DNA of 61,310 bases, from positions 1 through 61,310 of IMG/VR virus record IMGVR_UViG_3300032360_000004. One strand, given 5' to 3'. Below are positions 20,875-39,013 of this stretch, one piece after another; within the stretch, counting starts at the first letter, position 1, and the number at the start of each line of letters is the position of its first letter. The notes beneath the pieces are model-generated. The model made no database searches and was not told the origin of the DNA. It was given only the letters and a program-made list of their open reading frames with translations. The translations under genes and the position numbers were made by a program. Origin of the DNA: a virus.

Positions 20875-23800
20875 AGTCGAAAGGCTAGTAGTACGCCTAA
20901 CAGGCGACAGCACTAGCTACCAGCGTATGCTCCGCACGGCAGGAGCAGCTACTAAGCAGGCCACAGCCCAGTTCGCTATGGCGGGTAGGTCTGTGACTGC
21001 TCTGGGTGTGAAGTTGAAGGCACTCGGGGTTAAGATGGCGATGGTAGGGAAGGGCATGAGGAGCATGGGTACCAAGATGGCCGGTGCCCTTACCCTACCT
21101 ATAGCAGTCGTTGCCGGGGCAGGGGTATATGCCTTCGCCAAGTTTGACAAGGCTATGACTGAGTCCACCGCTATAATGAAGGTGACAGCAGAGCAGGCCG
21201 AGAGGATGAGGAAAACCGCCCTGTCCTTAAGCACCGCAGGGGGTGGTACACAGGGGGCAACAGAACTAGCTGAGTCCTATTACTTCTTAGCCTCGGCAGG
21301 TAAGAATGCTGAACAGTCCATGGCTCTGCTGCCAGCGGTTGCCCAGTTTGCTACGGCTGGTGCTTTTGATATGGCTAAGGCCACTGACCTGTTAACCGAT
21401 GCCCAGAGTGCATTAGGTTTGAGCAGTAAGGACGCAGCCAAGGATACGGAAAACCTGACTAGGGTTAGTGATGCACTGGTTAAGTCTGGCACACTAGCCA
21501 ACGCCAGCGTACAGCAGTTTGCAGAAGCCCTAACAGCGGATGCAGCAACTGCGTCCCTGAGCCTAGGACAGAGCCTGGAGAGCACCTTAGCCATACTGGC
21601 CCTGTACGCTGACAAGGGTAAGAAGGCAGCCGAAGCCGGTAACCTGTATGGCCGTGCTACTAGGCTGCTAACCAAGGCTTCCCGTGCTAATGCTGACCAG
21701 TTTAAAAAGCACAACGTCAAGGTTATAGATGCAGCTACCGGGGAATACCGCGACTTCATAGATATCCTGGATGATATGAATGTGGCGTTTAAGGGGATGA
21801 CTGGCCCCCAGCGGGCTGCTGCCCTGGAGCAGATGGGCTTCGCCGCATTGGCCCAGAAATCCATACTGCCCCTGCTAGATTCCACCACGGCACTTAAAGG
21901 TTATAAGAAGGAACTGGAGGGGGCAGGAGGTCAAACCGCTAAGACCGCTACCAAGCAGATGAAGTCCTTTTCCAACCAGCTAAAGGTGTTAAAGAACAGG
22001 CTGGTAAACGTGGGTATTGAGATCGGTAAAGTACTGGCACCCATGATAGAGAAATTAAGCGGTTGGATTTCGAGTGCGGTAAAGTGGTGGAACACTCTTA
22101 ACGCTTCCACTAAAAAGACCATCATTGTAGTAGCCTTGGTGGTAGCGGCTCTTGGTCCGATACTAATAATTGGTGGAATGCTGGTCAGTGCCATCGGTGC
22201 TATTGTCAGTGCCATAGGTAGCGTGATTGCCTTCCTTGGACCGTGGGGTGTGGCAATAGTTGCCCTGATAGGAACCATAGGTGGACTCACTCTTAGCTGG
22301 GATGATGTACTGGGGGCTGTTAAGGGCTTTGTCATGGGAGCTATTGGGTTTGTCATTCACTTTAGAGAGAACATGGGAATACTGTGGAAATGGCTAAAGG
22401 ATAACTGGGGTAAGATATTGCTATGGATGTTCGAGGCTTGGGTGCAGGTCAATCTAAATATGGCCTATAACTTGGGCGTGGGAATCAAGACTCTGGTCCG
22501 GCTGTATGTAGCTTTCCAGGGTTGGCTGTCTGGTATGTTCGAGCGTGCGTTTTCTAAGGAGTTTCTTAAGTGGGTTTTCATAGGCCTCGCGAAAGTGGGC
22601 CAAGCACTTCTCGACTTTGCTGAAGCTGCATGGGAAACTCTAAAGGGTATATTTACTGGGGCAGCCCCCACTATGGGGGACTTTATGGACCAGTTAAAAG
22701 ATGACTTCGATAAAGGTGCGGAGAATATAAACTTCATAGAGACGGCTGGCGATATTATCTCGGAAGAGGCCAAGAACCTTAAAGGTCCTCTAGAAGGTAT
22801 GTGGTCAGACCTGGAAGGTCCTCAGTTCAACCTGGAAACTGGGTTTAATAAAGCTGAGACCAAGAAGGTTGCCAAAGACGTTGCCGAAGATGCTGCCAAA
22901 GCCGTAGAAAAAGCCGTAGATAAGAAAGTTGATAAGGAAATAAAAGCCAACGTCCACTATAGTGTGAGCGGCATAGGGGCAGTGGAAGCAGGTACCGCTG
23001 AAGCCATGGCACGGGTTAGGGAATTCATGTCTCTAAAACCGGATGCCAACCTAGACAAGAAAGCTTCCCTAGAAGCCGCGATAAAAGCCCAAGAAGCACG
23101 CAAAGCACAGGTGCGAGCAGGTGGTGCTGATCCGGGAGCCAAACAGTCGAAGACTATACTAGAGCAGGTCACAGAACCGGGTGGTGTGTTTGGCCCACGC
23201 ATGGGACACGGCAAATGGGATAGTATCCCGGGGAACCCACCCACTGGCATAGCCGCAGAAGCCGCAGCCGCAGCCGCAGCAGCTAGCTCCACTGGCGTAG
23301 GGGAAGCCCATAGGATGTATGGTCCCGCAGCAGGTGCTAAGCGGAAGGCAGAACAGCAAGATGTATACAATAACGATCCGGCCAACATGGTCGGGAAAAT
23401 GATAGACAAAGTAAAAGCAAATCTGCCATTCGCTAGAGCAAAGTTTCCGGGAGAAGATGGTGGCCAGGATGCACCCGTCAATGCGGTTGCTGAGTATCAA
23501 AAGAAGATGGCGGAAATTGAAGCAAAGACGCCATCCGGTATAGGTGCAAAGCTAATGGCGGATGCCGGAACCGCGATGAAAAGTATAGAGGGAGCCGGGG
23601 TTGCGGGACACAAGTTTACTCCTGAACAGTTAGCTGCCCAGAAGACGGTTAGGGGAGGACTACAAGGGGGTGACGGTGCTGGGTTCCTAGGACTAAGCCC
23701 CCAGGAATTCGCAAGAATAGACGCCGAGAATAAGGCAGCCGAAGCAAGTAAAAGGGCAAGAGCCGCTAACCCGTGGTTGGATAAGAGGGTTAAATCCTCA

Positions 23801-23953
23801 GAGTCTGTAATACAGGGAGTCACACCTAAGTCACAAGCACCGAAGCCTGATATGAACCTAGTTAATATATCGTCAGGAATAGATAAGTTGGTGGAGCTTG
23901 CTGAGGAACAGAATAAACTGGAGCCAGTGACCATATCAGGAGCGGGGTTATAA
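20858..23953 (+). CDS. Tape measure protein
   Basis: The 1031-residue protein is the longest in the tail block. It begins with VERLVVRLTGDSTSYQRMLR, a common start of phage tape measures, continues with a region like TP901-type tape measures (residues about 90-330: ESTAIMKVTAEQAERMRKTA, AESYYFLASAGKNAEQSMAL), then hydrophobic helices near 420-480 (VVALVVAALGPILIIGG and following), and a helical Ala/Lys/Glu-rich end. It sets tail length; at roughly 0.15 nm per residue the tail would be near 150 nm. The start overlaps the chaperone long form by 17 nt. Confidence 0.92.
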   Translation: MAAETEVERLVVRLTGDSTSYQRMLRTAGAATKQATAQFAMAGRSVTALGVKLKALGVKMAMVGKGMRSMGTKMAGALTLPIAVVAGAGVYAFAKFDKAMTESTAIMKVTAEQAERMRKTALSLSTAGGGTQGATELAESYYFLASAGKNAEQSMALLPAVAQFATAGAFDMAKATDLLTDAQSALGLSSKDAAKDTENLTRVSDALVKSGTLANASVQQFAEALTADAATASLSLGQSLESTLAILALYADKGKKAAEAGNLYGRATRLLTKASRANADQFKKHNVKVIDAATGEYRDFIDILDDMNVAFKGMTGPQRAAALEQMGFAALAQKSILPLLDSTTALKGYKKELEGAGGQTAKTATKQMKSFSNQLKVLKNRLVNVGIEIGKVLAPMIEKLSGWISSAVKWWNTLNASTKKTIIVVALVVAALGPILIIGGMLVSAIGAIVSAIGSVIAFLGPWGVAIVALIGTIGGLTLSWDDVLGAVKGFVMGAIGFVIHFRENMGILWKWLKDNWGKILLWMFEAWVQVNLNMAYNLGVGIKTLVRLYVAFQGWLSGMFERAFSKEFLKWVFIGLAKVGQALLDFAEAAWETLKGIFTGAAPTMGDFMDQLKDDFDKGAENINFIETAGDIISEEAKNLKGPLEGMWSDLEGPQFNLETGFNKAETKKVAKDVAEDAAKAVEKAVDKKVDKEIKANVHYSVSGIGAVEAGTAEAMARVREFMSLKPDANLDKKASLEAAIKAQEARKAQVRAGGADPGAKQSKTILEQVTEPGGVFGPRMGHGKWDSIPGNPPTGIAAEAAAAAAAASSTGVGEAHRMYGPAAGAKRKAEQQDVYNNDPANMVGKMIDKVKANLPFARAKFPGEDGGQDAPVNAVAEYQKKMAEIEAKTPSGIGAKLMADAGTAMKSIEGAGVAGHKFTPEQLAAQKTVRGGLQGGDGAGFLGLSPQEFARIDAENKAAEASKRARAANPWLDKRVKSSESVIQGVTPKSQAPKPDMNLVNISSGIDKLVELAEEQNKLEPVTISGAGL

Positions 23954-25374: not shown

Positions 25375-27564
25375 ATGGCAGATGCCTACTACCTATCGCC
25401 GGAAGATAAGGCCAAGCTGGAAGTCCTGCTTGCTAAGACCGCTAAACAGCAGGTAAACCCCGGTGGTGCATCTGATGGTCGCAGGCCGCACAGCCAACCA
25501 CCGGAGGTGTATCTGTGCCGGGTGCCGTGTCGTGATAGTATTCCGGCCATGACGGGTGACCAGCCCGGCTATGCAGAGTGCTGTATATTCAAGCTGGAAC
25601 TAAAAACTGACAAGGACGACGACGACCACCTGATCGTCCCTATTAAACACCCAGACGGCACCCACCGAAGGGAGGTGATCTACAATATATATAGTATCGC
25701 TGTACCGGACGATCGTTACTGGCGTATACAGCGTACTAAAGACGGGCGGTGGATAGCAGAGAAACCCGAAGAGGCATTCACCACCCCCGCTCCCGTCACC
25801 ACCACCACCACTGTAGATCCTTCAGCACCCACCACTACTACTCTGCTTCCTGGTCCTTCAGCTAGCCCCTGTTCAGGTACGTGTAAGTGGGTGTGGGATG
25901 ATACTGCTGGTATCTGGAACATAGACACCAATAATTGTGCCGCTGCTCCTACAACTACCAGTACGGGTATACCTACTTCCAGTACTACCGTGGGTCCTAC
26001 TACAACTGCCGGTCCCACCACTACCACCACCTGTGTATGCCCCACCACTACCACTACCTGGAGCCCCACTACTTTACCCCCCACCACCACCCTCGGTCCT
26101 ACTACCACCGGTCCTACCACTACTCAGGCACCTTGTGAATGTAACTATCCAAACTACTGTGGAACCACCGACGGAGAATGTAATGTAACCAGTTGCGTGC
26201 AGGGTAATCCTCAACCACCCCCCTGTATGGCAACTACCCCCGGTCCAACCACCACCACCTGTGACTGTAGCACCAGCACAACATTAGCCGGGGGGCCGAC
26301 ACTTCCACCGGGTAGCACCCTACCTCCTGGTGGTAGTTGTGCTGGCGGATGTGAGTGGGTATTTACCGGCCACTACGGTGGTGGCGGTACCGGGTGGCGG
26401 TTGGTCTCTAATAACTGCGACAGCAGTTGTCCCTGTGGTGTTCCTCCAGTTGGTGGTGACTTCTGCGATACACACAGTGCACCATGTATAACTCAGGGAA
26501 CGCCTGGAACGTGTTCCCCGACCTGCTCTAATACGTGTACCTTCTGGTGGGTGCCCCTTCTAAACAGGTGGGTATGGGTTGATGATAATTGTACCTGGAC
26601 TTGTCTCTACGGTTGGGGTTACTGCTCCTGTCCTTATCCAACTCATAACGGTGGTGCTGACTGTGCCCCTATTACCGTTAACTGTGTAATGCCCACCCCG
26701 CCTACCGTACCACCGGGGACGGGGGGTCCCTGTGGGCACTGCTACACGTCAACCACAAGCACATCCGTTCCAACTACTACCACTCCTGGCCCGTGTGCTT
26801 GGTGTAAGTTTCAGTGGGACACAGTCTCTTCCATATGGACAGTGGCAATAGATAAATGTGGTCCACAATGTAGTTGTATTCAACCGGGATACAGTGGTAC
26901 GGATTCTTGTGAAACAGCGGTCGTAACCTGTGCGACGACCACTACCACCATTGCTCCTAGTACCACTACCACTGCTGACCCCTGCTCAGGTTCAGCCACT
27001 TGGATATGGTGCGAGAACAAATCTAAATACTACCTGTCGTCGATGACCTGTGCAGGTACCGGTGATGCCGGGGCGTGTGGGTCTGCTGCGGCACCCGTTA
27101 TAGGGGACCACCCAAGCAACAACGGTAACTGTATTAGTGGAGCATCCACACACTGTGTTTCCGGGGGAATTATAACTACTGAGCCTCCATGTTCCGGTGA
27201 TTGCACTACCCTGCCCCCAACTACTACCACCCTAGCCCCAACCACCGCAGCACCTACTACAACGGCAGCACCAACGGCAGCACCAACTACAACTACAGCA
27301 GCACCTACAACAACAGCCGCACCGCCCACAACTACAACAGGCGAACCCGATTGCAGTTTGTTTACCAACTGTGTCTATGACTGGGGCTTTAACCCCATGA
27401 CCTTCCAGTACGAATACGGCCCACCGTATGTACCTTCTAACAGTTGTTATAATGAAGTAGGCTGCTGTTGTCCTCCGTTGGAGGGAACAACTGTATACGA
27501 AGGTCCGACAGCTATCAGAGCCTGTGCCTCTGGTGTTTCTGACACTAACGGTGAGTGTATGTAA
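25375..27564 (+). CDS. Mucin-like Thr/Pro/Cys-rich tail adhesin
   Basis: The 729-residue protein has a conventional N-terminal domain (residues about 1-140) and then alternates runs of Thr/Pro/Ala (for example PTTTAGPTTTTT) with at least six Cys-rich modules. Modules share a pattern C-x(2-3)-C-x-W/F-x-W ... W ... C ... C (CSGTCKWVWDDTAGIWNI, CAWCKFQWDTVSSIWTVAI, CSGSATWIWCENKSKYY). Thr-rich linkers of this type are O-glycosylated in mucins and some bacterial cell-wall proteins. The gene lies after tail tip genes and right before a glycosyltransferase cluster, so it is probably a host-binding fibre displayed on the virion, perhaps glycosylated. Many Cys suggest disulfides formed outside the cytoplasm. 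Confidence 0.75.
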   Translation: MADAYYLSPEDKAKLEVLLAKTAKQQVNPGGASDGRRPHSQPPEVYLCRVPCRDSIPAMTGDQPGYAECCIFKLELKTDKDDDDHLIVPIKHPDGTHRREVIYNIYSIAVPDDRYWRIQRTKDGRWIAEKPEEAFTTPAPVTTTTTVDPSAPTTTTLLPGPSASPCSGTCKWVWDDTAGIWNIDTNNCAAAPTTTSTGIPTSSTTVGPTTTAGPTTTTTCVCPTTTTTWSPTTLPPTTTLGPTTTGPTTTQAPCECNYPNYCGTTDGECNVTSCVQGNPQPPPCMATTPGPTTTTCDCSTSTTLAGGPTLPPGSTLPPGGSCAGGCEWVFTGHYGGGGTGWRLVSNNCDSSCPCGVPPVGGDFCDTHSAPCITQGTPGTCSPTCSNTCTFWWVPLLNRWVWVDDNCTWTCLYGWGYCSCPYPTHNGGADCAPITVNCVMPTPPTVPPGTGGPCGHCYTSTTSTSVPTTTTPGPCAWCKFQWDTVSSIWTVAIDKCGPQCSCIQPGYSGTDSCETAVVTCATTTTTIAPSTTTTADPCSGSATWIWCENKSKYYLSSMTCAGTGDAGACGSAAAPVIGDHPSNNGNCISGASTHCVSGGIITTEPPCSGDCTTLPPTTTTLAPTTAAPTTTAAPTAAPTTTTAAPTTTAAPPTTTTGEPDCSLFTNCVYDWGFNPMTFQYEYGPPYVPSNSCYNEVGCCCPPLEGTTVYEGPTAIRACASGVSDTNGECM

Positions 27565-27627: not shown

Positions 27628-29526
27628 ATGCCTAAACTAACCATTGGGATGGCCCACTTTGATGACTTTGACGGGGTGTACTTTACACTCCAATCTTTAA
27701 GGCTCTACCACACAGAGTTAATGTCCGAAGTGGAAGTGGTTGTTGTAGACAACAACCCACAGTCGGTTTTAGGCCAAGCTGTAAAAAACTTCATCCAGAG
27801 CCAGTCTCAGGGTACAGGCGGGGGCGTAAAGTACGTAGAGCAGGCCTCCCCCACTGGCACCAGCCCAGCCAGGAATACTATATTTCAGGTTGCCACTGGG
27901 GACTACGTGCTAGTGATGGACTGCCATGTACTCATAGCTCCAGGGGGTTTGGAATACCTGCTGGACTACTACTCTAAACATCCAGATACTTCTGACCTAT
28001 TAACCGGTCCCCTTCTCTATGACAGTATGACCCAGATTAGTACCCACTTCGATGATGAGTGGCGGTCGGAGATGTGGGGGACATGGGGAACCGCCTGGAA
28101 GTGCGGGTGTGGAGACGACGGGGTTGTCTTTTCTCTTAAACCCAGTGGAGAACAAAACCCAGTCACTAAGCCAAGGCTGGTGTCTCCTGGTTACATACCT
28201 ATAGAGTCTTGCGGTACCTGTAAGAAAAAGCTCCCCATACTTGGCTGGGCTGGGCACGAAGAGGCATATTCCAGGGAAGGGTTTAATATGCTGGGTATGG
28301 GCAAGGATGACAAGCCCTTTGAGATACCAGCACAAGGCCTCGGCCTGTTTAGTTGTCGCCGAGATGCGTGGTTGGGGTTCAACCCAGATGCACGGGGGTT
28401 CGGTGGAGAAGAACTATACATACACGGTAAGTATAGGGAAGCCGGGCATAAGGCACTGTGCCTGCCCCCATTGAAGTGGCTCCACAGATTTGGAAGACCC
28501 AGCGGGGTTAAATACCCGCTCACCCGGTGGAACAAAATCCGCAACTACGTGTTAGAGTTTACCGAGATGGGGTGGCCTCTTGATCCTATCCACGAACACT
28601 TCGTGGCTTCTGGGCTAATGCAGGAAGACCACTGGGAACTATTAGTTAGTGACCCAGTTAAAGCCATGGATCCTAATGAGGGAGAAGGGTGTGGCACCTG
28701 TGGTGCAGGGGACACCGGGAACCACGGTTCTATAAAGACCATCGAAGATGCGTACCTTTATGTGAAGGGTATTCCTAGGGATCTGGATCAACACCTGCCC
28801 AAGCTAAAGGAACTCGCTGAACAGGTTGACCACGTGACGGAGTTTAGCAACCGACGCGAGAGTGTAATAGCCCTACTGGCTGGGCTACCTAAAACCCTTG
28901 TTAGCTATAACACAGAACGGGATTCCCTAATCAGGCAGGTAGAGGGACTGGAAAATACGTCTGTGGATTTTACAGTGACTAGCAAAACCAGCGGAGAAGT
29001 ATCTTCTATAGAGGAAACCGACTTACTGTTTTTAGATATGGAGCACACGTTCGACGCATTACTGGTAGAACTATTAAAGTTCGGATCTTCGACCACAAGA
29101 AGATATATAGTAATGCACGACACGCAGATACACGGGAGCATAGGTAGTGACGGTGGACAGGGACTGCTTGATGCCGTGGCGGTATTCCTTGCAGAATTCC
29201 CAGAGTGGTCTGTGATTTACCACACAGCAGAACAGTACGGACTAACCGTACTGGGTAAGCTAAAGAAGGATAAGCCCAAGCTGCCCAGTAAACTAAAGAT
29301 GGCTACCAACCTTGCCAAAGCTATAAGCACGCACGTAGTCACCGGGGGTGAGACTACCAACGCGAAGGACTACAAGGCCCGGCTACAAGCGTGTAACTTG
29401 TGCGACCAACGGGTGGACAGCCAGTGTGCTGCCTGTGGTTGCTTTGTAGATAAGAAGGCATCACTCCAAAGCCAAAACTGTCCTCTTGCCCGGTGGCCTA
29501 AACTAACCACCCCGGTGAAGCCGTGA
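27628..29526 (+). CDS. Glycosyltransferase (GT-A, polypeptide-GalNAc-transferase-like) fused to methyltransferase-like domain
   Basis: The 632-residue protein starts with AGGAGCGAG. Residues 1-300 are a GT-A domain: VVVVDNNPQS, SPARNTIFQVATGDYVLVMD with Asp98-Cys-His100 (a DxH metal motif as in polypeptide GalNAc-transferases), and FGGEELYIHGKYREAGHKAL near 258-277, like the family's 'GGEnlE.sfr.w.cGg'. Residues 450-550 (LLFLDMEHTFDALL, RRYIVMHDTQIHG) resemble CmcI-type methyltransferase or hydroxylase folds. The end has Cys clusters (CNLC, CAACGC) that probably bind zinc. It directly follows the mucin-like gene. The GalNAc-transferase likeness is by motif only. Confidence 0.75.
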   Translation: MPKLTIGMAHFDDFDGVYFTLQSLRLYHTELMSEVEVVVVDNNPQSVLGQAVKNFIQSQSQGTGGGVKYVEQASPTGTSPARNTIFQVATGDYVLVMDCHVLIAPGGLEYLLDYYSKHPDTSDLLTGPLLYDSMTQISTHFDDEWRSEMWGTWGTAWKCGCGDDGVVFSLKPSGEQNPVTKPRLVSPGYIPIESCGTCKKKLPILGWAGHEEAYSREGFNMLGMGKDDKPFEIPAQGLGLFSCRRDAWLGFNPDARGFGGEELYIHGKYREAGHKALCLPPLKWLHRFGRPSGVKYPLTRWNKIRNYVLEFTEMGWPLDPIHEHFVASGLMQEDHWELLVSDPVKAMDPNEGEGCGTCGAGDTGNHGSIKTIEDAYLYVKGIPRDLDQHLPKLKELAEQVDHVTEFSNRRESVIALLAGLPKTLVSYNTERDSLIRQVEGLENTSVDFTVTSKTSGEVSSIEETDLLFLDMEHTFDALLVELLKFGSSTTRRYIVMHDTQIHGSIGSDGGQGLLDAVAVFLAEFPEWSVIYHTAEQYGLTVLGKLKKDKPKLPSKLKMATNLAKAISTHVVTGGETTNAKDYKARLQACNLCDQRVDSQCAACGCFVDKKASLQSQNCPLARWPKLTTPVKP

Positions 29527-30236
29527 GGATATTTATTATTAACTACAACCGGCTGACCAGCACCCGCAATATGGTGGAGTACCTATTAACGCTACCTGAT
29601 GCCGACCCGGTTATCATAGACAACGCCAGCACCTATCCTCCCCTGTTACACTGGTATAACCACGCCTGCCCGGTGGAAGTAGAGTTAGGAACTGAGGATT
29701 TTGGACCACGTGTACTGTGGGCAAATCGTAGCCGCCTAATACCCCCCGGTAAGGTGTACGCTGTAACTGACAGCGACCTGGACCTCAGTGGTTGCCCGGT
29801 TGACCTGTTGCAGCACCTGACCAGTGGGCTGGATCAATACCCTGAGATACGCAAGGTGGGTGTATCTTTAGCCCTGGAAGACATACCTGATGACAACCCA
29901 CTACAAGAGTTTACACGCAACCGCGAGGCACGGTACTGGGAAGACGAACGGGATGACAAGTTTTATGACGCTGACGTGGCCACTACTTTTGCCGTCTACC
30001 GCTCACACGATGGGCAGCCTCCAGCCCACTATGGTCCAGCCTTACGCAGCAAAGCACCGTACCAAGCCCGGCACCTACCGTGGTACCTAACCCCGGACAC
30101 TATGACAGATGAAGATAGGTACTACCTGGACCGCATAAACCCAGCCTGGACGGGTATTGTTTTTAGCCGCCATCTACAAAATCACTTGGATACTTTGGGA
30201 CCGGCTAACTATAAGGAGGACGTGGCATATGACTAA
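29523..30236 (+). CDS. Glycosyltransferase-like protein
   Basis: The 237-residue protein starts at GTG overlapping the previous stop (GTGA). IFIINYNRLTSTRNMVEYLL and PVIIDNASTYPPLLHW are the typical nucleotide-sugar-binding start of GT-A folds, and YAVTDSDLDLSG near residues 78-90 holds a DxD-type metal motif. The acceptor and donor are unknown. Tight coupling with flanking genes shows it works in the same glycan pathway. Confidence 0.72.
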   Translation: MRIFIINYNRLTSTRNMVEYLLTLPDADPVIIDNASTYPPLLHWYNHACPVEVELGTEDFGPRVLWANRSRLIPPGKVYAVTDSDLDLSGCPVDLLQHLTSGLDQYPEIRKVGVSLALEDIPDDNPLQEFTRNREARYWEDERDDKFYDADVATTFAVYRSHDGQPPAHYGPALRSKAPYQARHLPWYLTPDTMTDEDRYYLDRINPAWTGIVFSRHLQNHLDTLGPANYKEDVAYD

Positions 30237-30999
30237 CCAACTACCCCGCTTGGCTTGCCTGTGCCCCACGTATAAACGTCCCAACTGCTTAGCTAATGCA
30301 GCCGCCTGCTATGTGCAGCAGACCTACCCCGCACACCTAAGTAGGTTGTTTGTGCTGGACGACGCAAGCCAGCACGCGGACAGTCCGGTGTCTGATGACG
30401 GTATAAGGTGCATAGTGCAGAGCAGTCGGTATACCACCCTGCCAGCCAAGTTTGCAGCACTGATAGACATAGCCACAGCCGAATGGAATCCAGATGCGTT
30501 TGTCATCTGGGAAGATGATGACGTGTTCCTACCTTGGCACTTACAGAGTATCTCCGACGCTATTATGTCAGGGGGAGAATACCTGACCAGCCGCACCGTA
30601 CATAGCACTTACGAGCAGCCCATGGGTGGGACTGTACTAGAAGGTGCAGATGGTAGGTTCCACAGTTCCTGGGCATTTACGGTAGACCTTCTTAAACGTA
30701 TTGGAGGCTACCCCAACACAGCACGCCTGGACTTTGACCAGCAACTAGGCTCGGCTCTTAAAGCCGAAGCCGGTACAGCCCACCACTACAGCTACCCACG
30801 GGGACCACAGCCCAGCTACGTGTACCGCTGGGGTAACGGTATATACCACGGTAGTCAGCGGGGCGAGGAAGGTTTTCAATCTCTATGGGATGAACTGTCC
30901 CAGCTACCTGCCCCGTATGTAGGTGCCTTGGTGCCGAAGATGGATAGAGAAACCACCCTAATACATAAGGTGCTGCAATGCGATGGGCTTACGGTGTAA
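30229..30999 (+). CDS. Family-2-like glycosyltransferase
   Basis: The 256-residue protein uses ATG 30229 with AAGGAGGA seven to nine nt upstream, overlapping the previous gene by 8 nt. PRLACLCPTYKRPNCLANAA, LFVLDDASQHAD and FVIWEDDDVFLPWHL are the classic GT2 start, first Asp and DxD motif. The later HSSWAFTVDLLKRIGGYP is like the acceptor-side 'fr...l...GgfdE' region. It probably adds a sugar to the glycan made by this cluster. Confidence 0.85.
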   Translation: MTNQLPRLACLCPTYKRPNCLANAAACYVQQTYPAHLSRLFVLDDASQHADSPVSDDGIRCIVQSSRYTTLPAKFAALIDIATAEWNPDAFVIWEDDDVFLPWHLQSISDAIMSGGEYLTSRTVHSTYEQPMGGTVLEGADGRFHSSWAFTVDLLKRIGGYPNTARLDFDQQLGSALKAEAGTAHHYSYPRGPQPSYVYRWGNGIYHGSQRGEEGFQSLWDELSQLPAPYVGALVPKMDRETTLIHKVLQCDGLTV

Positions 31000-31715
31000 C
31001 CACGGTACCCCAGCGGTTCGACAATCTATTACCACGCACCTTAGAATCGTTGGCTGCTGGTGGCTTTGATAAGCCAAGGTTGTTTGTGGACGGTGTACAG
31101 AACGCTAGCCAGTATGACTATCTGGGCCTGGAAGTGACCACCCACTACCCCACCATACGGACCTACGGTAATTGGCTGTTGGCCCTATGGGAACTGTACA
31201 TACGCAACCCAGCGGCTGAGCGGTACGCAATATTCCAGGATGACATAATTACCTACCGCAATTTACGACGGTACCTGGAACAGACTACTTACACCCACGG
31301 TTCCCATGAACTGTACTACAACCTCTACACCTACCCGGTAAACCAAAGCCCTCCACCCAGTGAGGAGTATACCGGGTGGCACGCCAGTAACCAGATGGGT
31401 CGTGGTGCACTGGCCTTGGTGTTTAACCGTCCGGCAATTAGTACCCTGCTGGAACAGTCCCATATAATTTCCCACCCGCAGAATGCCCAACGTGGCTGGC
31501 GTAGTGTGGACGGCACAGTGGTGACAGCCTTTAAAGCTATCCAGTGGCTAGAGTACGTACACGCCCCCACCTTGGTGCAGCACACAGGTACCGACCTCAG
31601 TAGTATGAAGAACCGTGGATACCGTGAGCTACCTGAAACCTTTAAGGGTGAAGCCTACGACGCCCTTCAACTGCTACCCACCACTGAGTCAATAGAAGCA
31701 CAGCCATGCCCATGA
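30978..31715 (+). CDS. Glycosyltransferase-like protein
   Basis: The 245-residue protein overlaps the previous gene by 22 nt. WAYGVTTVPQRFDNLLPRTL and KPRLFVDGVQ resemble a GT-A start, and YAIFQDDIITYRNLRRYL near residue 80-98 carries the DD(I) metal-binding motif seen in capsular and LPS glycosyltransferases. A later GRGALALVFNRPAISTLLEQ is like the acceptor region. The sugar specificity is unknown. Confidence 0.72.
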   Translation: MRWAYGVTTVPQRFDNLLPRTLESLAAGGFDKPRLFVDGVQNASQYDYLGLEVTTHYPTIRTYGNWLLALWELYIRNPAAERYAIFQDDIITYRNLRRYLEQTTYTHGSHELYYNLYTYPVNQSPPPSEEYTGWHASNQMGRGALALVFNRPAISTLLEQSHIISHPQNAQRGWRSVDGTVVTAFKAIQWLEYVHAPTLVQHTGTDLSSMKNRGYRELPETFKGEAYDALQLLPTTESIEAQPCP

Positions 31716-32038
31716 AAACCATAACCCTGGACAGCCCAAAGGACTTCCTAACCTACAGAGAAGGGTCAGGAAATACTGTGGAAATATTTGACATACAGGT
31801 GGGCACCAAGCGGGGCCGAGGGCGTGGTCGCAAACTTGTAGATACGCTGTTGAAGAAACTGGCACACCCCCCGATCCATGGCCGTCCACTACCTATCCCT
31901 ATGGTGTTTGCTATTACCCGGCATAACAACCGGATTGCTCGGGAGTTTTATACAGCAGTCGGGTTTAGGTTTGTTGGTTTCTTACACCACTTTTACGGGG
32001 TAGGTAATGACGCAGTTATGTATGGAATAGACGCATGA
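31706..32038 (+). CDS. GNAT-family acetyltransferase
   Basis: The 110-residue protein has the acetyl-CoA pyrophosphate-binding pattern R/Q-x-x-G-x-G/A in VGTKRGRGRGRKLVDTLLKK (residues about 32-51) and the later NNRIAREFYTAVGFRFVGF, typical of GNAT motif B. It could acetylate an amino sugar produced by the DegT aminotransferase at the end of this cluster. A protein or small-molecule target is equally possible. It is translationally coupled on both sides. Confidence 0.8.
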   Translation: MPMKTITLDSPKDFLTYREGSGNTVEIFDIQVGTKRGRGRGRKLVDTLLKKLAHPPIHGRPLPIPMVFAITRHNNRIAREFYTAVGFRFVGFLHHFYGVGNDAVMYGIDA

Positions 32039-33030
32039 AAGTAGGCACACTGGCATACGCCACTAGCCAAGGGCTGGGCATACTGGCCAAGTCATTTATC
32101 GACAACGGGGTGGTAACCGACATCCTGGTGGTAGAGCACTACAACCGTCCAGCTAATGACTGGTATCCTGATGCACCGGTCACCCCCATGGCCCCGCTTA
32201 ACATGGACCTAGCTAGGGACTTTGTTAAGAGCATGGACGCGATGCTGTTTTTTGAAACCCCATTTAGTTGGGATCTAATACCTTACTGCCGCGACAACGG
32301 TGTACGTACCGTACTCATGCCCATGTACGAATGTATGCCCCGCACCCTGCCCTACTGCCCCGACAGCTACATATGTCCTAGCCTGTTGGACCTACGCCAC
32401 TATCCTCTAAACAGCACCTTTATACCTGTGCCGGTCCAGGTACCTTGGCAGCAACGGCACAAGGCCCGCACCTACGTACACAATGGTGGACACCTTGGGC
32501 TACGTGGGCGTAATGGTACCCTGGAACTACTACAGGCTATGAAGTATGTACAGAGTCCACTACGGCTGCTGGTGCGTGGGCAGTGCGGTAGTTTCCCAGG
32601 ATTAGTAAGTCAGGTACCAGAAATAGCGAGCGACGAACGGGTTAGCATTATAAGGGGCACCCTGCCGTACGATGAACTGTGGAACACCGGGGACGTGTTT
32701 GTTTTCCCCGAGAAGTTTAATGGTCTCAGCCTAGCCTTACAGGAAGCCCGTGCTGCCGGGATGCTGGTGATGGGCACACACCGGTACCCAATGACAACAT
32801 GGCTACCTAACGAAGCCCTGATACCTGTACTTGGCACACACCGGGCTTGTGTCAGTGGACGGTGTATAGAGTTTGACGAGGCAGTGATAGACCCAGAAGA
32901 CATAGCCGCCACAATGGACAAGTGGTACGACCAGGATATATCCAGCCAGTCACTAGCTGGTAAGCACTGGGCCGAGGATATGAGTTGGGAAAGCCTTGGT
33001 CCTCAGTACCTGGAATACATAATAGGTTAG
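32035..33030 (+). CDS. GT4-like glycosyltransferase
   Basis: The 331-residue protein overlaps the previous stop (ATGA). KVGTLAYATSQGLGILAKSF at the start and FPEKFNGLSLALQEARAAGM near residues 224-243 fit the GT-B fold of family 4, where the latter is the E-x7-E donor-binding block ('F.Eg.g....EAmA.G.pvi'). GT4 enzymes add sugars using nucleotide-sugar donors. Cytoplasmic, no membrane span seen. Confidence 0.82.
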   Translation: MKVGTLAYATSQGLGILAKSFIDNGVVTDILVVEHYNRPANDWYPDAPVTPMAPLNMDLARDFVKSMDAMLFFETPFSWDLIPYCRDNGVRTVLMPMYECMPRTLPYCPDSYICPSLLDLRHYPLNSTFIPVPVQVPWQQRHKARTYVHNGGHLGLRGRNGTLELLQAMKYVQSPLRLLVRGQCGSFPGLVSQVPEIASDERVSIIRGTLPYDELWNTGDVFVFPEKFNGLSLALQEARAAGMLVMGTHRYPMTTWLPNEALIPVLGTHRACVSGRCIEFDEAVIDPEDIAATMDKWYDQDISSQSLAGKHWAEDMSWESLGPQYLEYIIG

Positions 33031-33038
33031 CCTACACC

Positions 33039-33929
33039 ATGCACATACTATACGTGGCTAAACACCGGGGCGGTGGTAACGATGACGAGGGAGCAATTAC
33101 CTATGGACTGCGGGAACTGGGCCACACCGTCACAACCATAGACGAAAACCGTGGTCACCAAGCTAGTGCCCACATCGGGGGAGCAGACATATGCCTGTTC
33201 CATAAATGGCAGGATCTTAATACCATCAGGAAGATAACTATTCCCAAAGTGTTCTGGTACTTTGACCTAGTGACCTATGACGATATTAAACTGGATGTAC
33301 GTAACGGCCAACGTGTGCAGTGGATGGAAGCGGTAACCCCACTAGTAGACCTAGGATTCTGCACCGACGGGGATTGGGTATCTCATGACACCAGTGGTAA
33401 ACTCCACCACCTGACCCAAGGGGCTGACGTTAGAACGGCCCTTCCAGGTAACCCACTACCAGCCGGACCGCCTATAGCTCTGACCGGTATACGGACTGGT
33501 GGTGGTACAGGACGCGAGAGCCATGTGGACGAACTGGTATCAACCTACGGTAGTAGTTTCCACCATGTAATTAGTGGGGTGCATGGCAGCCAATTGGCTG
33601 ACGTTATAGCCCGGTCCCGGATAATGATCGCCCCGGACTCACCAACCACAGACCTTTACTGGAGTAACCGTGTGTACCTTACGCTGGGTTATGGTGGGTT
33701 CATGTTGCATCCCTATTGCCACAACCTAACCCGTCACTACACCGACGGTGTCCATCTTGTGTACTACCACACCCGGCAAGACCTAAACGAAAAAGTAGAG
33801 CACTACCTCCACCACCCCGATGTCTGCCACCGTATAGCCGCAGCCGGGTACGCCCATACCTTAGCCCACCACACGTACACACGCCGATGCCGTGCACTGG
33901 TGAAAACTGCGGAGGACCATCTGTTATGA
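33039..33929 (+). CDS. GT-B-type glycosyltransferase (CgeB-like)
   Basis: The 296-residue protein begins at ATG 33039. HILYVAKHRGGGNDDEGAIT and LRELGHTVTTIDEN are the usual GT-B start, and the C-terminal half (RIMIAPDSPTTDLYWSNRVY, LGYGGFMLHPYCHNLTRHYT, HLVYYHTRQDLNEKVEHYLH) follows the 'sR.fe..a.G.flLt' and 'Y.d..dL.eki.yyL' pattern of CgeB-type glycosyltransferases. This is close enough to call the fold; the sugar is unknown. Confidence 0.78.
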   Translation: MHILYVAKHRGGGNDDEGAITYGLRELGHTVTTIDENRGHQASAHIGGADICLFHKWQDLNTIRKITIPKVFWYFDLVTYDDIKLDVRNGQRVQWMEAVTPLVDLGFCTDGDWVSHDTSGKLHHLTQGADVRTALPGNPLPAGPPIALTGIRTGGGTGRESHVDELVSTYGSSFHHVISGVHGSQLADVIARSRIMIAPDSPTTDLYWSNRVYLTLGYGGFMLHPYCHNLTRHYTDGVHLVYYHTRQDLNEKVEHYLHHPDVCHRIAAAGYAHTLAHHTYTRRCRALVKTAEDHLL

Positions 33930-34480
33930 CAATCTCTACTCCTATGCCCCAGGACATATTAAACCCTGCTTTTTGGCAGGAGCAGTTGCACGGTGCCGAG
34001 CACCTACACCACGCTGTGTTCCACTGCCCACCAGAAAAGTGGCAACGCATAGAACAGCGACACCGGGAAATACTGGCTGAACATATACAACCCGCCGACA
34101 GTGTTCTGGATGGGGGGTGTGCATGGGGCAGAATGATAGACCTGCTACCGCCGTCCTGGCAGGGCACCTATACGGGTGTTGACCTGTCCCCAGACTTTAT
34201 AGACATGGCCAAGGCTAACTACACCCCGGTGGATGAGGCTCATAACGTACCCCTGTTCTACGTGGATGATCTACGTAACGACTTGCACTACCTGACACAC
34301 CATATACCCCAGTCTAAATATGACTGGGCCATAGTGGTAAGTATGAGGCGAATGATAATCCGCAACTTGGGGGATGAAGGATGGGACCTCATACAGCACC
34401 AACTGTTTAATGTGGCTAAGCGGATACTGATGCTGGAATATAAAGAAGACGACGTTGGACAGGTTCTGGTTTATTGTTGA
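33926..34480 (+). CDS. SAM-dependent methyltransferase
   Basis: The 184-residue protein starts at ATG 33926, overlapping the previous TGA. DSVLDGGCAWGRMIDLLPPS near residues 58-77 is motif I of class I methyltransferases, and YTGVDLSPDFIDMAKANY near 82-99 carries the acidic residue that binds SAM ribose. An in-frame upstream extension to 33716 is a Pro/Arg-rich shadow of the previous gene. It probably methylates a sugar of the cluster glycan. Confidence 0.85.
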   Translation: MTISTPMPQDILNPAFWQEQLHGAEHLHHAVFHCPPEKWQRIEQRHREILAEHIQPADSVLDGGCAWGRMIDLLPPSWQGTYTGVDLSPDFIDMAKANYTPVDEAHNVPLFYVDDLRNDLHYLTHHIPQSKYDWAIVVSMRRMIIRNLGDEGWDLIQHQLFNVAKRILMLEYKEDDVGQVLVYC

Positions 34481-34499
34481 CCCAAGGAGAGCGAGAAAG

Positions 34500-35474
34500 A
34501 TGGAAGCCAGGAGCATACTAAAATCCAATGCCTGTGTTATTGGTGGTGCTGGGTTTTTGGGTAGCCACCTAGTTAACCGGCTGGTGGAAGACTACGGCTG
34601 CACCGTGCTGGTGTTGGACAACCTGATAAGTGGCCTACCCAAGCACGTACACCCGGCTGCTAAGTTTGTATGGCATGACATACGCGATGAGGAATCTACC
34701 ACCACCCGGCTCCTGGTAGACCACGACATACAGTTTGTATTCAACTACGCAGCAGAGCCGTACATACCTGAGTGCTGGGAACGACCACTGCACTTCTTTG
34801 ACATTAACGCTGTGGCTGTGCTGCGGGTACTTAATGCCTGCCAGCAGGCTGGGGTGGAAGGGCTGCTACAGGTTAGCAGTGCAGAAATATATGGAGATAT
34901 GAAGGGTAAGATTAAGGAGACCGACCCCGTGCAGGCTCACAGCACCTACGGGGTAAGCAAGCTAGCAGCCGACGGGCTAGTCCAGGTGAGGTGGCGTGAG
35001 GCCAGTGTTCCGGCTATTGCCATGCGTCAGTTTAACTGTGTGGGTGAGCGGGAAACCCATGAGTACGTTATCCCAGAGATTATAAGCCAACTGGCTGCCC
35101 AACAGGGCCGGGATAACGCACTGGTGCAACTGGGCAACAACAGCACTAGGGATTTCCAGTATGCGGGGGATGCCGTAGCCATGGCCATAGAACTACTGGA
35201 GCACGGTCAGTATGGCGACGTATACAACATGGGCAGCGAAGAGGCCATAACCATCTACGACCTAGCCGTTCTGATAGGTGACCTGATGGGCTTTGGCAGC
35301 ACCTCTATAAATACGGATGCAGAGCGTGTACGCCCTTGGGAAATATGGCACTTACAAAGCGACAACACCAAGCTGTATGGTGTTATCAGGCAACGCCCAC
35401 GGGTTCCCCTAAAGCTGGCTCTACAACGGACCATTGACTACTACCACGCCAACAACAACCGCTGGGATTTCTAG
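34500..35474 (+). CDS. NAD-dependent sugar-nucleotide epimerase/dehydratase (SDR)
   Basis: The 324-residue protein starts 10 nt after AAGGAG. CVIGGAGFLGSHLVNRL near residue 11-27 is the GxxGxxG NAD-binding motif, FNYAAEPYIPECWERP follows the 'hlAa...v..s...P' region, VSSAEIYGD gives the Ser/Thr, and STYGVSKLAADG gives the catalytic YxxxK. These enzymes act on UDP- or GDP-sugars as 4-epimerases or 4,6-dehydratases. With the next gene (aminotransferase) and the GNAT protein, a 4-amino-4,6-dideoxy sugar pathway is plausible. Confidence 0.9.
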   Translation: MEARSILKSNACVIGGAGFLGSHLVNRLVEDYGCTVLVLDNLISGLPKHVHPAAKFVWHDIRDEESTTTRLLVDHDIQFVFNYAAEPYIPECWERPLHFFDINAVAVLRVLNACQQAGVEGLLQVSSAEIYGDMKGKIKETDPVQAHSTYGVSKLAADGLVQVRWREASVPAIAMRQFNCVGERETHEYVIPEIISQLAAQQGRDNALVQLGNNSTRDFQYAGDAVAMAIELLEHGQYGDVYNMGSEEAITIYDLAVLIGDLMGFGSTSINTDAERVRPWEIWHLQSDNTKLYGVIRQRPRVPLKLALQRTIDYYHANNNRWDF

Positions 35475-35476
35475 CC

Positions 35477-36508
35477 GTGCAACCGTACCAAGACCTGGAG
35501 CACAAGTACGGCCAGTGGATAGGCAACCCCAACACGGTGGCCTGTGCTACCGGTACGGCTGCCCTGCACTTAGCCCTGGAAGCCTTATGTCTGCCACCGG
35601 GCAGCGAGGTGTTAGTGCCCGAGTTTACCATGGTGGCCTGTGCCCGTGCGGTAACCATGGCCGGGCTGGTGCCTGTGTTTGTAGACTGCGATCCCACCAA
35701 TCTACTGGTAAGCCCCAAAGCCTACAGCCAACATATAGGACCACGCACCAGAGCCATAATGGTGGTCCACATATATGGCCGACAGTGTGACATGGTAGGC
35801 GTGTCCACATTAGCAGCACAGCACAACCTAGCCGTGGTAGAAGACCTAGCCGAAGCCCACGGCATAGCACCCCACCCGGCCAGCACCGCAGCCTGCTGGA
35901 GTTTCTACCGGAACAAAATTATAGCCGGTGAGGAAGGTGGTATGGTGGCCTTTAAGCAACAGGCCCACGCCACCAAGGCACGCCAACTACGGAGCCTGGG
36001 ATTCACCCCCGACCATGACTTCAAACACATACCACGGGGCGTTAATGCCCGACTGAGCAATTGCCACGCCACGCTAATACTAGGAAGCCTAGCCACCGTG
36101 GAAGACAACCTGACCAAGCGAACACAGGTGTGTAACTGGTACGACCAGCTAGTGCCCCCGGCCTACCACCAGCCACCCCGTGCAGTGTGCTGGGTGTACG
36201 ACATATGCCTACCATCGGAAACTAACACCTCGCTCCTGGTCAGCAAGTTAAACACGGCAGGGGTGGCAGCCCGTCTAGGGTTTAAGCCCATGAGTGAGCA
36301 ACCAGAATACGCAGCCCCGGTGCAGCACCTAGCCGCTTACCGGGCCAGCAGGCAGGTGGTGTACCTACCAGTACAGCCACGCCTGGAACAGCCACAAGTA
36401 CGGAAGACCGTACAGGCGTTACTGTCAGCCATTCAGTCCCAGTCCCCGCCCTGCGGCATGGGTCCGCTCGCTCCGGCACGTGCCTGTGGGGTGGGGCTGG
36501 GGCGTTAG
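35477..36508 (+). CDS. DegT/DnrJ/EryC1-family sugar aminotransferase
   Basis: The 343-residue protein starts at GTG 35477, 2 nt after the previous stop. VACATGTAALHLALEALCLP near residue 21-40, EVLVPEFTMVACARAVTMAG, EDLAEAHG and SFYRNKIIAGEEGGMV (PLP-binding Lys) are the family signatures. They transfer an amino group from glutamate to a keto sugar nucleotide, for example in perosamine-type pathways. The C-terminal about 25 residues (PLAPARACGVGLGR) look like readthrough into GC-rich DNA and may not be conserved. Last gene of the glycan operon. Confidence 0.9.
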   Translation: MQPYQDLEHKYGQWIGNPNTVACATGTAALHLALEALCLPPGSEVLVPEFTMVACARAVTMAGLVPVFVDCDPTNLLVSPKAYSQHIGPRTRAIMVVHIYGRQCDMVGVSTLAAQHNLAVVEDLAEAHGIAPHPASTAACWSFYRNKIIAGEEGGMVAFKQQAHATKARQLRSLGFTPDHDFKHIPRGVNARLSNCHATLILGSLATVEDNLTKRTQVCNWYDQLVPPAYHQPPRAVCWVYDICLPSETNTSLLVSKLNTAGVAARLGFKPMSEQPEYAAPVQHLAAYRASRQVVYLPVQPRLEQPQVRKTVQALLSAIQSQSPPCGMGPLAPARACGVGLGR

Positions 36509-37183: not shown

Positions 37184-39013
37184 CTAGCTAACATACACCA
37201 GCACCTTAGCAGCACGAGTGATAGCCACGTAACGCAGGTTCATTTCCTGGTCACGTTGCCATGCACTCTTAGCCATGGGGTGTGGGATACCCGCACCTTC
37301 CGGCTCCAGCAAAAACACCCGGTCGGCTTCTAACCCCTTGGCCTTATGTACACTGCTCAGCATGATGCCGGGAGTGTTTCGGTCGTTAGTAAATATCTGC
37401 TCGATCTTACTAATGACGTCCGCAATACTCTGGGCTTCCTCAGTGAAGCACAGCAGGCAATCGTGCCGGTCTTGCAAAGCAATGAGCCGGGCCGAACTGG
37501 GATTACGCTTAGCGTTTTCCTTTCGTTCTTCTGCGTGCAGCCAGTCAGTCAACCGGCCCACTAGGTTAGGTACGTCAGATGCCTTAAGCCTATTGACGGT
37601 GCTAATGAGACCTTGACCAATGTCCCGTCCCTGGATGTTAGCCTGCACCCCGTCTTTAATAAACCTAAAGCACTCACTGACCAGCGGAGCATTAACACGG
37701 CACAGTACCATGTCGCCACCTGTGGCTATGGTGCGGTAATTACCATCACCCTTATACGCAGCCCGTAGCACGGTGCCAGGACCGTTGTCGGGGTGGGCTT
37801 CAAAGTCTGGTACCAACGCACGGGCCTCTTCCACTATGGCCTTGCCACAACGGCGGGTCACTGTCAGTGGCAAACTAGTGCAGCCCCGGTTAGTCTCGCT
37901 AAGGATCTCTTCCAGGCGGGGTATGCTGTCACTGTCCGCACCGGCAAACCCGTAAATAGCCTGCTTGGGATCACCACACAGTACCAGCCTACTGCCTACC
38001 TTCAGGGCAAGCTGCTGCTGGCAGCGGTTCAGGTCCTGGGCTTCATCAACCAGCAGCAGATCGTACTGGGTGACGGGCAGGTCCAAGGCCACGGGTAGCC
38101 ATATCATGTCGTCGAAGTCTATGCACCCGTCACGGGTCACATCCTTACAACGGTCAAGCACTCGGGGCACAAGGTCAAACACTTCAGCCTCGCTACCATT
38201 AAGCTCCACGTCATAGTGGGCTGCCAGTTGTTGCAACTCATCCTGCATAGTAGTTAGCAGGTTGGTCTGAGTAGCACCCAGTCCCACGAGGTTCATCTTG
38301 CACAGGCTAACCAGCTTGGCAGTGGCCCGGACCATGGACCGTTTCTTCTCATCCCGTCGCAGGGCACGGCTATCCTGGCCCAGCAACTCAGCCACAATAT
38401 CCTGCACCCGGTACTGGTTAACCTTCACCCGGCCACAGGCTTTACCTACAGCCTTAAAGCCCATGCTGTGCATTGTCATAGCTTCACAGCCTGCGGGTAC
38501 CCGCTGCTGCAACTCTGTGGCGATGGACTTATTAAAGGCGACGAAGCAGATGGTGCGGACCTTACCTGCACTCAACTGCATAGCGTCCCACACGGCTGCC
38601 TGCTGGGGGCTGGGGGTTAGGGGGCTGGTGCCACCCTGTACCAGCTTTAACCCTTCCACCAGTGTGGTGGTCTTGCCAGTACCAGCCCGTGCAATAACAA
38701 CCAAGTGCGGTGCCGTGCACCGTATCAACGGCCTGTCCCCACGTAGGACATTGGCCAACCCAATACTGGGCTCCTGGTGTGGCGGGATACCACCAAGCCC
38801 TGTGCCGTCGTTGGCACAGGCGTCGGTGCTGTTGAGGCAGACAAACCTAGCAGCACTACGAAACGTATGTTCCAACCCGGTTACAGGCTCAGTGACAGTG
38901 TACCGGGTACGACCCCGGCTGTTCTGTGTAATAGCGTCCACACGTACGGACGTCTGCTCGCCACCCACTGTGGCCACATATAGTCTTCCCTGTTCAATCT
39001 GTGATTTCCTCAT
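37184..39013 (-). CDS. Superfamily 1 (UvrD/Rep-like) DNA helicase
   Basis: The 609-residue protein shows SF1 motifs: Walker A ARAGTGKTTT near residues 108-117, CFVAFNKSIATELQQRVP (Ia region), DLLLVDEAQDLN near 324-335 (II), LCGDPKQAIYGFAGAD (III), and a C-terminal LSSVHKAKGLEADRVFLLEP (V) with LRYVAITRA (VI). The first 80 residues are a small beta domain not typical of UvrD. It likely unwinds DNA in replication or repair. GGAGCAAGC precedes ATG. The start overlaps the HTH gene by 4 nt. Confidence 0.9.
   Translation of the reverse strand: MRKSQIEQGRLYVATVGGEQTSVRVDAITQNSRGRTRYTVTEPVTGLEHTFRSAARFVCLNSTDACANDGTGLGGIPPHQEPSIGLANVLRGDRPLIRCTAPHLVVIARAGTGKTTTLVEGLKLVQGGTSPLTPSPQQAAVWDAMQLSAGKVRTICFVAFNKSIATELQQRVPAGCEAMTMHSMGFKAVGKACGRVKVNQYRVQDIVAELLGQDSRALRRDEKKRSMVRATAKLVSLCKMNLVGLGATQTNLLTTMQDELQQLAAHYDVELNGSEAEVFDLVPRVLDRCKDVTRDGCIDFDDMIWLPVALDLPVTQYDLLLVDEAQDLNRCQQQLALKVGSRLVLCGDPKQAIYGFAGADSDSIPRLEEILSETNRGCTSLPLTVTRRCGKAIVEEARALVPDFEAHPDNGPGTVLRAAYKGDGNYRTIATGGDMVLCRVNAPLVSECFRFIKDGVQANIQGRDIGQGLISTVNRLKASDVPNLVGRLTDWLHAEERKENAKRNPSSARLIALQDRHDCLLCFTEEAQSIADVISKIEQIFTNDRNTPGIMLSSVHKAKGLEADRVFLLEPEGAGIPHPMAKSAWQRDQEMNLRYVAITRAAKVLVYVS

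What the first reader, a model, noticed from the sequence alone, without database searches (positions are those of the whole stretch)
27628..36508. Ten-gene glycan locus attached to the adhesin: phage-encoded O-glycosylation?
Directly after the Thr-rich protein come coupled genes for glycosyltransferases (five or six), a GNAT, methyltransferases, an SDR epimerase/dehydratase and a DegT aminotransferase. The first transferase has a DxH motif (Asp98-Cys-His100) and an FGGEELYIH block, as in polypeptide GalNAc-transferases that start mucin O-glycans. A dedicated virus-encoded mucin-type glycosylation system for its own fibre would be novel. Glycosylation of hypermodified DNA or of host surface are alternatives.
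Basis: inference. Interest (0 to 1): 0.88.

Follow-up and report, generated by a model that had tools for sequence, protein, structure and literature searches.

The report
Phage mucin-like tail glycosylation gene cluster
A bacterial virus carries, next to a threonine-rich tail protein, a set of sugar-attaching genes whose first enzyme is predicted to be shaped like the animal enzymes that start mucin sugar chains, and many related viruses keep the same pairing, which suggests that phages build mucin-like coats on their own tails.

Summary
In detail: ten coupled genes (27628-36508) follow a Thr/Cys-rich protein (25375-27564; 137 of 729 residues Thr). The first enzyme's GT domain, folded with 44 family sequences (pLDDT 94.6), matches polypeptide GalNAc-transferases best: all 50 listed Foldseek rows, VIA-align ranks 1-29 at Z 24.4-20.2, next family 19.1. 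D98, H100 and H286 are invariant. Relatives keep the pairing with Thr tracts: 77 of 86 loci nearest the window, none farther out in 540,893 bases. In a more distant hold-out my pre-stated 70% was narrowly missed (51 of 76); frame-aware counting gives 57 of 75. Tail loci without the transferase have a tract in 1 of 36. Best reading: virus-encoded O-glycosylation of its own tail protein, the first enzyme starting chains, the others extending them with a 4-amino-6-deoxy-type sugar. Not shown: activity, sugar, presence in virions. The window also has DNA-hypermodification genes, but 0 of 25 transferase-bearing records have HMUDK_hel.

The parts
25375..27564 (+). Thr-rich (137 of 729), Cys-rich (58 of 729) protein, 729 aa; small Cys/Trp domains separated by P-T-T-T type linkers; proposed acceptor, placed where tail-tip or fibre genes lie
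   Evidence: similar Thr/Cys-rich proteins at the same place in L008 and L010; tail role inferred from position after the tape-measure gene 20858-23953
27628..29526 (+). GT2-class transferase (res 1-330, GalNAc-transferase-like fold, D98-x-H100, H286) + CmcI-like methyltransferase stretch (433-541, motif looks degenerate) + Cys-rich tail (578-623, DUF6171); proposed chain-initiating enzyme
29523..30236 (+). probable GT-A type transferase (no Pfam match over cut-off); relative of a domain fused to the family GT in L014
   Evidence: (24% over 195 aa, E 2.5e-13)
30229..30999 (+). probable GT2-type transferase (no Pfam match); relatives lie beside the family GT in L008, L010, L014, L018 and in planctomycete loci L103, L105
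30978..31715 (+). GT-A-like protein with a QDD motif, function uncertain
   Evidence: sequence; no Pfam match
31706..32038 (+). GNAT-type N-acetyltransferase (below Pfam cut-off)
32035..33030 (+). GT1-type glycosyltransferase (below Pfam cut-off)
33039..33929 (+). GT1-type glycosyltransferase (PF13524, E 3.3e-19)
33926..34480 (+). SAM-dependent methyltransferase (PF13649)
34500..35474 (+). SDR nucleotide-sugar epimerase/dehydratase, best NCBIfam match LegB (below cut-off)
35477..36508 (+). DegT-type sugar aminotransferase; best NCBIfam match LegC (below cut-off), best solved relative perosamine synthetase 3bn1 (E 3.6e-48)

Best explanation
The cluster is a virus-encoded, cytoplasmic O-glycosylation system for the virus's own Thr-rich tail protein. 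The 27628 enzyme attaches the first sugar directly from a nucleotide sugar to Thr (or Ser) in the Thr-rich linkers of the 25375-27564 protein, in the manner of polypeptide GalNAc-transferases. The following transferases lengthen the chain; the SDR, aminotransferase, GNAT and methyltransferase make or decorate an unusual 4-amino-(acetamido)-6-deoxy type sugar. The result would be stiff, glycan-clad spacers between small Cys-rich domains at the tail tip, shielding it or serving in adhesion. Shown: gene order, predicted fold and conserved motifs, family-wide linkage to Thr tracts. Inferred: acceptor, order of steps, sugar, presence in the virion and purpose.
For: Fold: model pLDDT 94.6, pTM 0.92; all 50 listed Foldseek rows are polypeptide GalNAc-transferases; VIA-align ranks 1-29 likewise, Z 24.4-20.2 (rmsd 2.8-3.5, 242-263 aligned), next K4 chondroitin polymerase Z 19.1. 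Sequence: a profile of 13 members finds ppGalNAc-T10 (2d7i) E 1.1e-4, with D98-x-H100 on its DSH and H286 on its VGH. Linkage, loci nearest the window: tract ORF at gene offset -1 in 59 of 84, at offsets beyond -6 or +4 in 0 of 441 ORFs; 77 of 86 loci frame-aware, no tract farther out; 37 of 43 clusters at 70% identity. Hold-out: 57 of 75 frame-aware. Base rate: tail loci found by the tape-measure gene that lack the transferase have a tract in 1 of 36; all 8 that have the transferase have a tract (4 of those 8 were already known pairs). Planctomycete genomes: 5 of 7 loci read with flanks have a tract of 13 or more in 30, one has 11. Tract motifs differ between loci: (TTTTTTEEP)n, (TTG)n, PTTT-type. 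Neighbours: PF00535 in 11 of 73 downstream genes, also methyltransferases and sulfotransferases, against PF00535 in 0 of 57 downstream of other Thr-run genes. No protein of the cluster has a clear membrane segment.
Against: No activity, virion or glycan data. Thr tracts are far commoner than this transferase: none of 59 viral loci with an in-frame Thr tract, found by DNA pattern, has it, so a tract does not need this enzyme. A minority of relatives lack any tract (9 of 86; 18 of 75), and at 70% clustering of the hold-out only 4 of 9 clusters have one. My pre-stated hold-out threshold (70%) was narrowly missed by the pre-stated measure, 51 of 76. A deeper profile gave a weaker GalNAc-T sequence match (E 0.005). 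No lectin domain. SDR, aminotransferase and GNAT have no family-wide link to the tracts.
Confidence: 0.72

Rival explanations
1. The transferases decorate hypermodified viral DNA: the window's thymidylate-synthase-like enzyme and 5-hmdU kinase-like proteins make a modified pyrimidine, and the 27628-36508 enzymes add sugars to it.
For: PF00303 protein 56845-58098, whose best solved match is a CMP 5-hydroxymethylase; two HMUDK_hel proteins 53096-54001 and 54004-54903; a kinase-like gene 54900-55445. Phage DNA-modifying glycosyltransferases are in print (titles and abstracts listed).
Against: HMUDK_hel in 0 of 25 transferase-bearing virus records of 45-174 kb and the TS family in 3 of 25, although the search does find HMUDK_hel in the window; records may be fragments. 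The cluster adjoins the Thr-rich gene, not the DNA genes, and the first enzyme's nearest folds act on polypeptides. Its extension enzymes could still serve DNA.
Confidence: 0.12
2. The cluster remodels the host envelope (receptor masking or serotype conversion) and its place beside the tail gene is a moron site.
For: Sugar-nucleotide genes and several transferases are typical of envelope glycan loci (recalled); some relatives lie in planctomycete chromosomes.
Against: No membrane protein, flippase or lipid-linked initiating enzyme in the cluster. A moron site would not explain why tail loci without the transferase have a tract in only 1 of 36 while those with it mostly do.
Confidence: 0.1
3. 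Thr tracts are only flexible, repeat-prone linkers; transferase and tract gene are co-inherited neighbours without a functional link.
For: Thr runs are common in phage proteins without this transferase; a minority of relatives lack tracts; related loci share ancestry.
Against: Tract-bearing proteins beside the transferase include ones that look unrelated, with different repeat units; linkage persists over 37 of 43 clusters and in prophage-like and chromosomal planctomycete loci; GT-linked tract proteins are also Cys-rich (7.2% against 1.2%).
Confidence: 0.06

Closest known systems
Polypeptide GalNAc-transferases (CAZy GT27; solved GalNAc-T1, T2, T4, T7, T10, T12, Toxoplasma T3, PGANT9)
   Same: Predicted GT-A catalytic fold nearest to these; D-x-H and third His aligned with T10; Thr/Pro-rich candidate acceptor
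   Different: 13-19% identity in the structural rows; no ricin-type lectin domain and no membrane anchor; fused to a methyltransferase-like stretch and a Cys-rich tail; viral and prokaryotic; donor sugar unknown
Mycobacteriophage virion glycosylation (Freeman et al. 2023; text not held, known from passages in PMC12619734 and PMC10955285)
   Same: Glycans on virion proteins; phage-encoded transferases (for these phages recalled, not read)
   Different: Reported on C-termini of capsid and tail tube subunits; no Thr-tract tail-tip protein and no GalNAc-T-like enzyme in what I read
Phage DNA glycosylation and hypermodified pyrimidines (starts of abstracts of PMC5977210 and PMC6024577, listing)
   Same: The window carries HMUDK_hel and TS-like genes and glycosyltransferases
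   Different: The 27628 family does not go with these genes in 25 relatives' records
Perosamine/legionaminic-type sugar pathways (LegB-LegC, PseC, perosamine synthetase)
   Same: SDR and DegT pair, nearest named models LegB and LegC, nearest solved aminotransferase perosamine synthetase
   Different: All below the curated cut-offs; product unknown

Membership tests
Polypeptide GalNAc-transferase (GT27) | GT-A catalytic domain nearest in fold to GT27 | tested here: met
   ranks 1-29 all GalNAc-Ts, Z 24.4-20.2 against 19.1 for the next family
Polypeptide GalNAc-transferase (GT27) | D-x-H metal motif and a third metal-binding His | tested here: met
   D98, H100 and H286 invariant in 44 rows; aligned with DSH and VGH of T10; metal role of these residues recalled
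Polypeptide GalNAc-transferase (GT27) | C-terminal ricin-like lectin domain (stated in PMC4202792, passage) | tested here: not met
   the C-terminal half matches RMNT_CmcI (below cut-off) and DUF6171, no lectin family
Polypeptide GalNAc-transferase (GT27) | Golgi type II membrane anchor (recalled) | tested here: not met
   no 19-residue stretch above 1.6 in gene 27628
Polypeptide GalNAc-transferase (GT27) | Transfer of GalNAc from UDP-GalNAc to Thr/Ser | not testable with these tools
   needs enzyme assay
Phage virion-protein glycosylation system | Phage-encoded glycosyltransferases | tested here: met
Phage virion-protein glycosylation system | Glycan on a virion protein | not testable with these tools
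   needs virion mass spectrometry
gtr-type serotype conversion cluster | Membrane flippase and bactoprenol transferase with membrane segments (recalled) | tested here: not met
   no such family or clear membrane segment among the ten genes; the aminotransferase has one short stretch at 1.75
Phage DNA glycosylation | Modified-base synthesis genes in the same virus | tested here: met
Phage DNA glycosylation | The transferase family goes together with modified-base genes in relatives | tested here: not met
   HMUDK_hel 0 of 25, TS family 3 of 25 records; records may be fragments

The most novel reading that the evidence does not exclude
A large family of phages (518 matching stretches in IMG/VR with one pattern set), some of them infecting Planctomycetota, carries a prokaryotic mucin-type O-glycosylation system: an enzyme related to polypeptide GalNAc-transferases puts the first sugar on Thr/Ser tracts of tail-tip proteins, so that virions bear mucin-like glycoprotein tails. 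The eukaryotic mucin-initiating enzymes and these viral ones would share an ancestor.
Probability: 0.4. Interest if true: 0.92.

Novelty: new variant of a known kind. Interest (0 to 1): 0.8.

Why it matters
If true, mucin-type protein O-glycosylation is not only eukaryotic: viruses of bacteria have their own version, dedicated to a tail protein and encoded next to it, which gives a one-gene test of acceptor and enzyme. It would explain why long Thr tracts sit in these tail proteins, offer a compact cytoplasmic mucin-glycosylation toolkit, and raise the question of the origin of the polypeptide GalNAc-transferases. I found no description in the held library: searches listed none, judged from listings and the passages read; subscription journals and preprints are mostly not held.

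Tried and rejected
Window Thr-rich N-terminus as query: no relative found in viral contigs. INPHARED phages: no match for the window enzyme at E 1e-5 nor for the L002 transferase at 1e-3. A fold made with only five sequences was poor (pLDDT 41.6) and was not used. A broad tape-measure alignment was too divergent and a second was not scanned; the one was used. A special Pro-rich signature of transferase-linked tracts was looked for and not found: P 8.7% in both sets. A simple Cys/Trp motif regex was too narrow: 9 of 38 linked proteins against 0 of 66 others, one match in the window. PHROGs gave a tail or virion-structure name for only two of ten tract proteins (L105, L045).

Rows dropped and biases: 36 of 80 TMP loci with under 4 kb downstream. 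Of the 8 TMP loci with both transferase and tract, L230, L238 and L249 are the records that supplied the TMP query (L003, L004, L105) and L240 is the record of L002; the other four (L243-L246) look like one virus group. So the Fisher value (p 2.8e-4 by 27 clusters) leans on known pairs; the unbiased part is the base rate of 1 tract in 36 loci without the transferase (that one, L234, is a contig ending 1.3 kb after the tract gene). In one search one of 88 loci (L055, ORF miscalled on the minus strand) and loci with no upstream ORF were dropped. In one search two of 88 loci and three of 78 with under 300 bases upstream were dropped. In one search, 21 of 80 loci had no in-frame tract. In the hold-out, L091 and L076, already seen, were left out. 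Only the best 80 relatives are kept per scan, so the first set is biased to those nearest the window.
Full report
What is there. The window is a virus record of 61,310 bases in IMG/VR. It has terminase, portal, head and tape-measure genes on the left and replication genes on the right. Between the tape-measure gene (20858-23953) and a leftward helicase gene (37184-39013) lie two small genes, the Thr/Cys-rich gene 25375-27564 and ten coupled genes 27628-36508. The Thr-rich protein has 137 Thr, 86 Pro and 58 Cys in 729 residues; in a non-overlapping set of ORFs of 100 aa or more it is the only one with 10 or more Thr in any 30 residues, with a maximum of 17 of 30. No protein of the cluster has a clear membrane segment; only the aminotransferase has one short stretch just above threshold.

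The first enzyme. Pfam gives GT2 over residues 18-120, a CmcI-like methyltransferase stretch below cut-off and the Cys-rich DUF6171 tail. Relatives found by sequence gave a 13-row alignment whose profile finds a beta-1,3-GlcNAc-transferase best (6h1j, TarP by recall; E 2.3e-6, N-terminal half only). Polypeptide GalNAc-transferases are among the solved proteins matched, and their match reaches through the acceptor half (T10, E 1.1e-4; also T9 and T7, weakly T1), with D98-x-H100 on DSH and H286 on VGH of T10. A 44-row profile with more insertions gave a weaker T10 match, E 0.005. In that alignment D98, H100 and H286 are invariant. The domain folded with those 44 sequences has pLDDT 94.6 and pTM 0.92. 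All 50 Foldseek rows shown are polypeptide GalNAc-transferases, and VIA-align puts them at ranks 1-29 with Z 24.4 to 20.2; the next is K4 chondroitin polymerase at 19.1. Many GT-A enzymes score high, so it is the gap that counts. The lectin domain and membrane anchor of the animal enzymes are missing, so I do not file it as a GT27 member; I say that it probably works like one.

Linkage to Thr tracts. In 88 loci nearest to the window enzyme, an ORF with at least 13 Thr in 30 residues is the gene directly upstream in 59 of 84 usable loci, against 0 of 441 ORFs beyond offsets -6 or +4. Counting every plus-strand ORF, 77 of 86 loci have such a tract within 4 kb upstream or 3 kb downstream and none has one farther out in 540,893 bases. 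At 70% identity of the transferase, 37 of 43 clusters have a tract within offsets -4 to +1. D-x-H is seen in 87 of 88 (the other, L018, is truncated), and FGGE in 87 with FGAE in one. Proteins with tracts include ones that look unrelated, with different repeat units. The exceptions are L015, L016, L057, L067, L071, L072, L074, L081 and L088; of these L057, L067, L081 and L088 have weaker Thr tracts.

Control. Tail loci fetched by the tape-measure gene instead: of 44 with enough downstream DNA, transferase and tract together 8, transferase alone 0, tract alone 1 (a contig that ends 1.3 kb after the tract gene), neither 35; by 27 clusters 4/0/1/22, Fisher p 2.8e-4. Four of the 8 (L230, L238, L240, L249) are records already known to carry the pair, three of them the source of the tape-measure query, so the p value is flattered. 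What the control does show is the base rate: tail loci without the transferase have a tract in 1 of 36.

Hold-out. Before a second scan headed by distant members I wrote the prediction that at least 70% would have a tract by the ORF measure. The result was 51 of 76, 67%, narrowly short; several misses are ORF-calling artefacts (antisense poly-Val ORFs), and the frame-aware count is 57 of 75. By clusters it is 29 of 40 at 90%, 20 of 30 at 80%, but only 4 of 9 at 70% identity. Some misses have poly-Ser tracts instead (L354, L356, L361, L370) or a Thr tract in a neighbouring ORF not counted on the plus strand (L350). In the hold-out 5 loci have a tract in the far part (470,001 bases). Conversely, of 80 viral loci with a Thr-run DNA pattern, 59 have an in-frame tract and none has this transferase: tracts are much more widespread than the enzyme.

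Hosts. The single relative from the species-genome scan lies in a Planctomycetaceae MAG. Of 392 genomes of that phylum searched, 7 have the enzyme at E 1e-30 or better. Of seven such places read with flanks, L105, L106, L108 and L109 look like prophage tails and L103 and L107 more like chromosomal loci; tracts of 13 or more are near in five (L103, L105, L106, L107, L108), L109 has 11 of 30, L104 none. So some of these phages probably infect Planctomycetota; the window's own host is not known.

The rest of the cluster. Downstream genes of other loci are glycosyltransferases (PF00535 in 11 of 73), methyltransferases (4) and sulfotransferases (3); downstream of unrelated Thr-run genes PF00535 is found in 0 of 57, with one member each for a few other transferase families. 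The window's SDR and aminotransferase are nearest to LegB/LegC models (below cut-off) and, for the aminotransferase, perosamine synthetase, hence my inference of a 4-amino-6-deoxy type sugar. In L002-L005 a 2OG-Fe(II) oxygenase-like gene lies between tract gene and transferase (order; Pfam tested for L002 and L003).

Against. The window also encodes two HMUDK_hel proteins and a thymidylate-synthase family protein, so its DNA is probably hypermodified and some cluster enzymes might act there. Among 25 transferase-bearing virus records HMUDK_hel occurs in none and the TS family in three; records may be fragments.

Literature. Virion glycosylation of mycobacteriophages is known (passage in PMC12619734; passages in PMC10955285; the original paper is not held). 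The listings showed nothing on GalNAc-transferase-like phage enzymes or Thr-tract tail proteins. PMC4202792 (passages) states that all GALNTs are in GT27 and have a ricin-like lectin domain.

Verdict. The acceptor, donor and virion location remain inference.

Noticed in passing
53096-59167: DNA-hypermodification gene set: two tandem HMUDK_hel proteins, a HMUDK-like kinase, a nucleoside-deoxyribosyltransferase-like protein, a thymidylate-synthase family protein closest to CMP 5-hydroxymethylase, and MazG
   Followed up: partly
L002:9417-9995, L003:9273-9848, and the same place in L004 and L005: A 2OG-Fe(II) oxygenase-like gene lies between the Thr-rich tail gene and the transferase in these relatives; it could hydroxylate the acceptor before glycosylation
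   Followed up: no
L103, L107: Transferase directly downstream of a Thr-tract gene in planctomycete chromosomes in surroundings that do not look like a prophage: a possible host-owned version
   Followed up: no
L015, L016, L360, L372: Family transferase without a Thr tract beside it, in L015 and L016 next to replication-type genes; acceptor unknown
   Followed up: no
27628-29526, residues 433-541: CmcI-like methyltransferase stretch with an apparently degenerate glycine motif compared with the intact-looking one in L008
   Followed up: no
L044, L045, L047, L048, L049, L050, L054, L058: Transferase flanked on both sides by Thr-tract genes, at offsets -1 and +1
   Followed up: no
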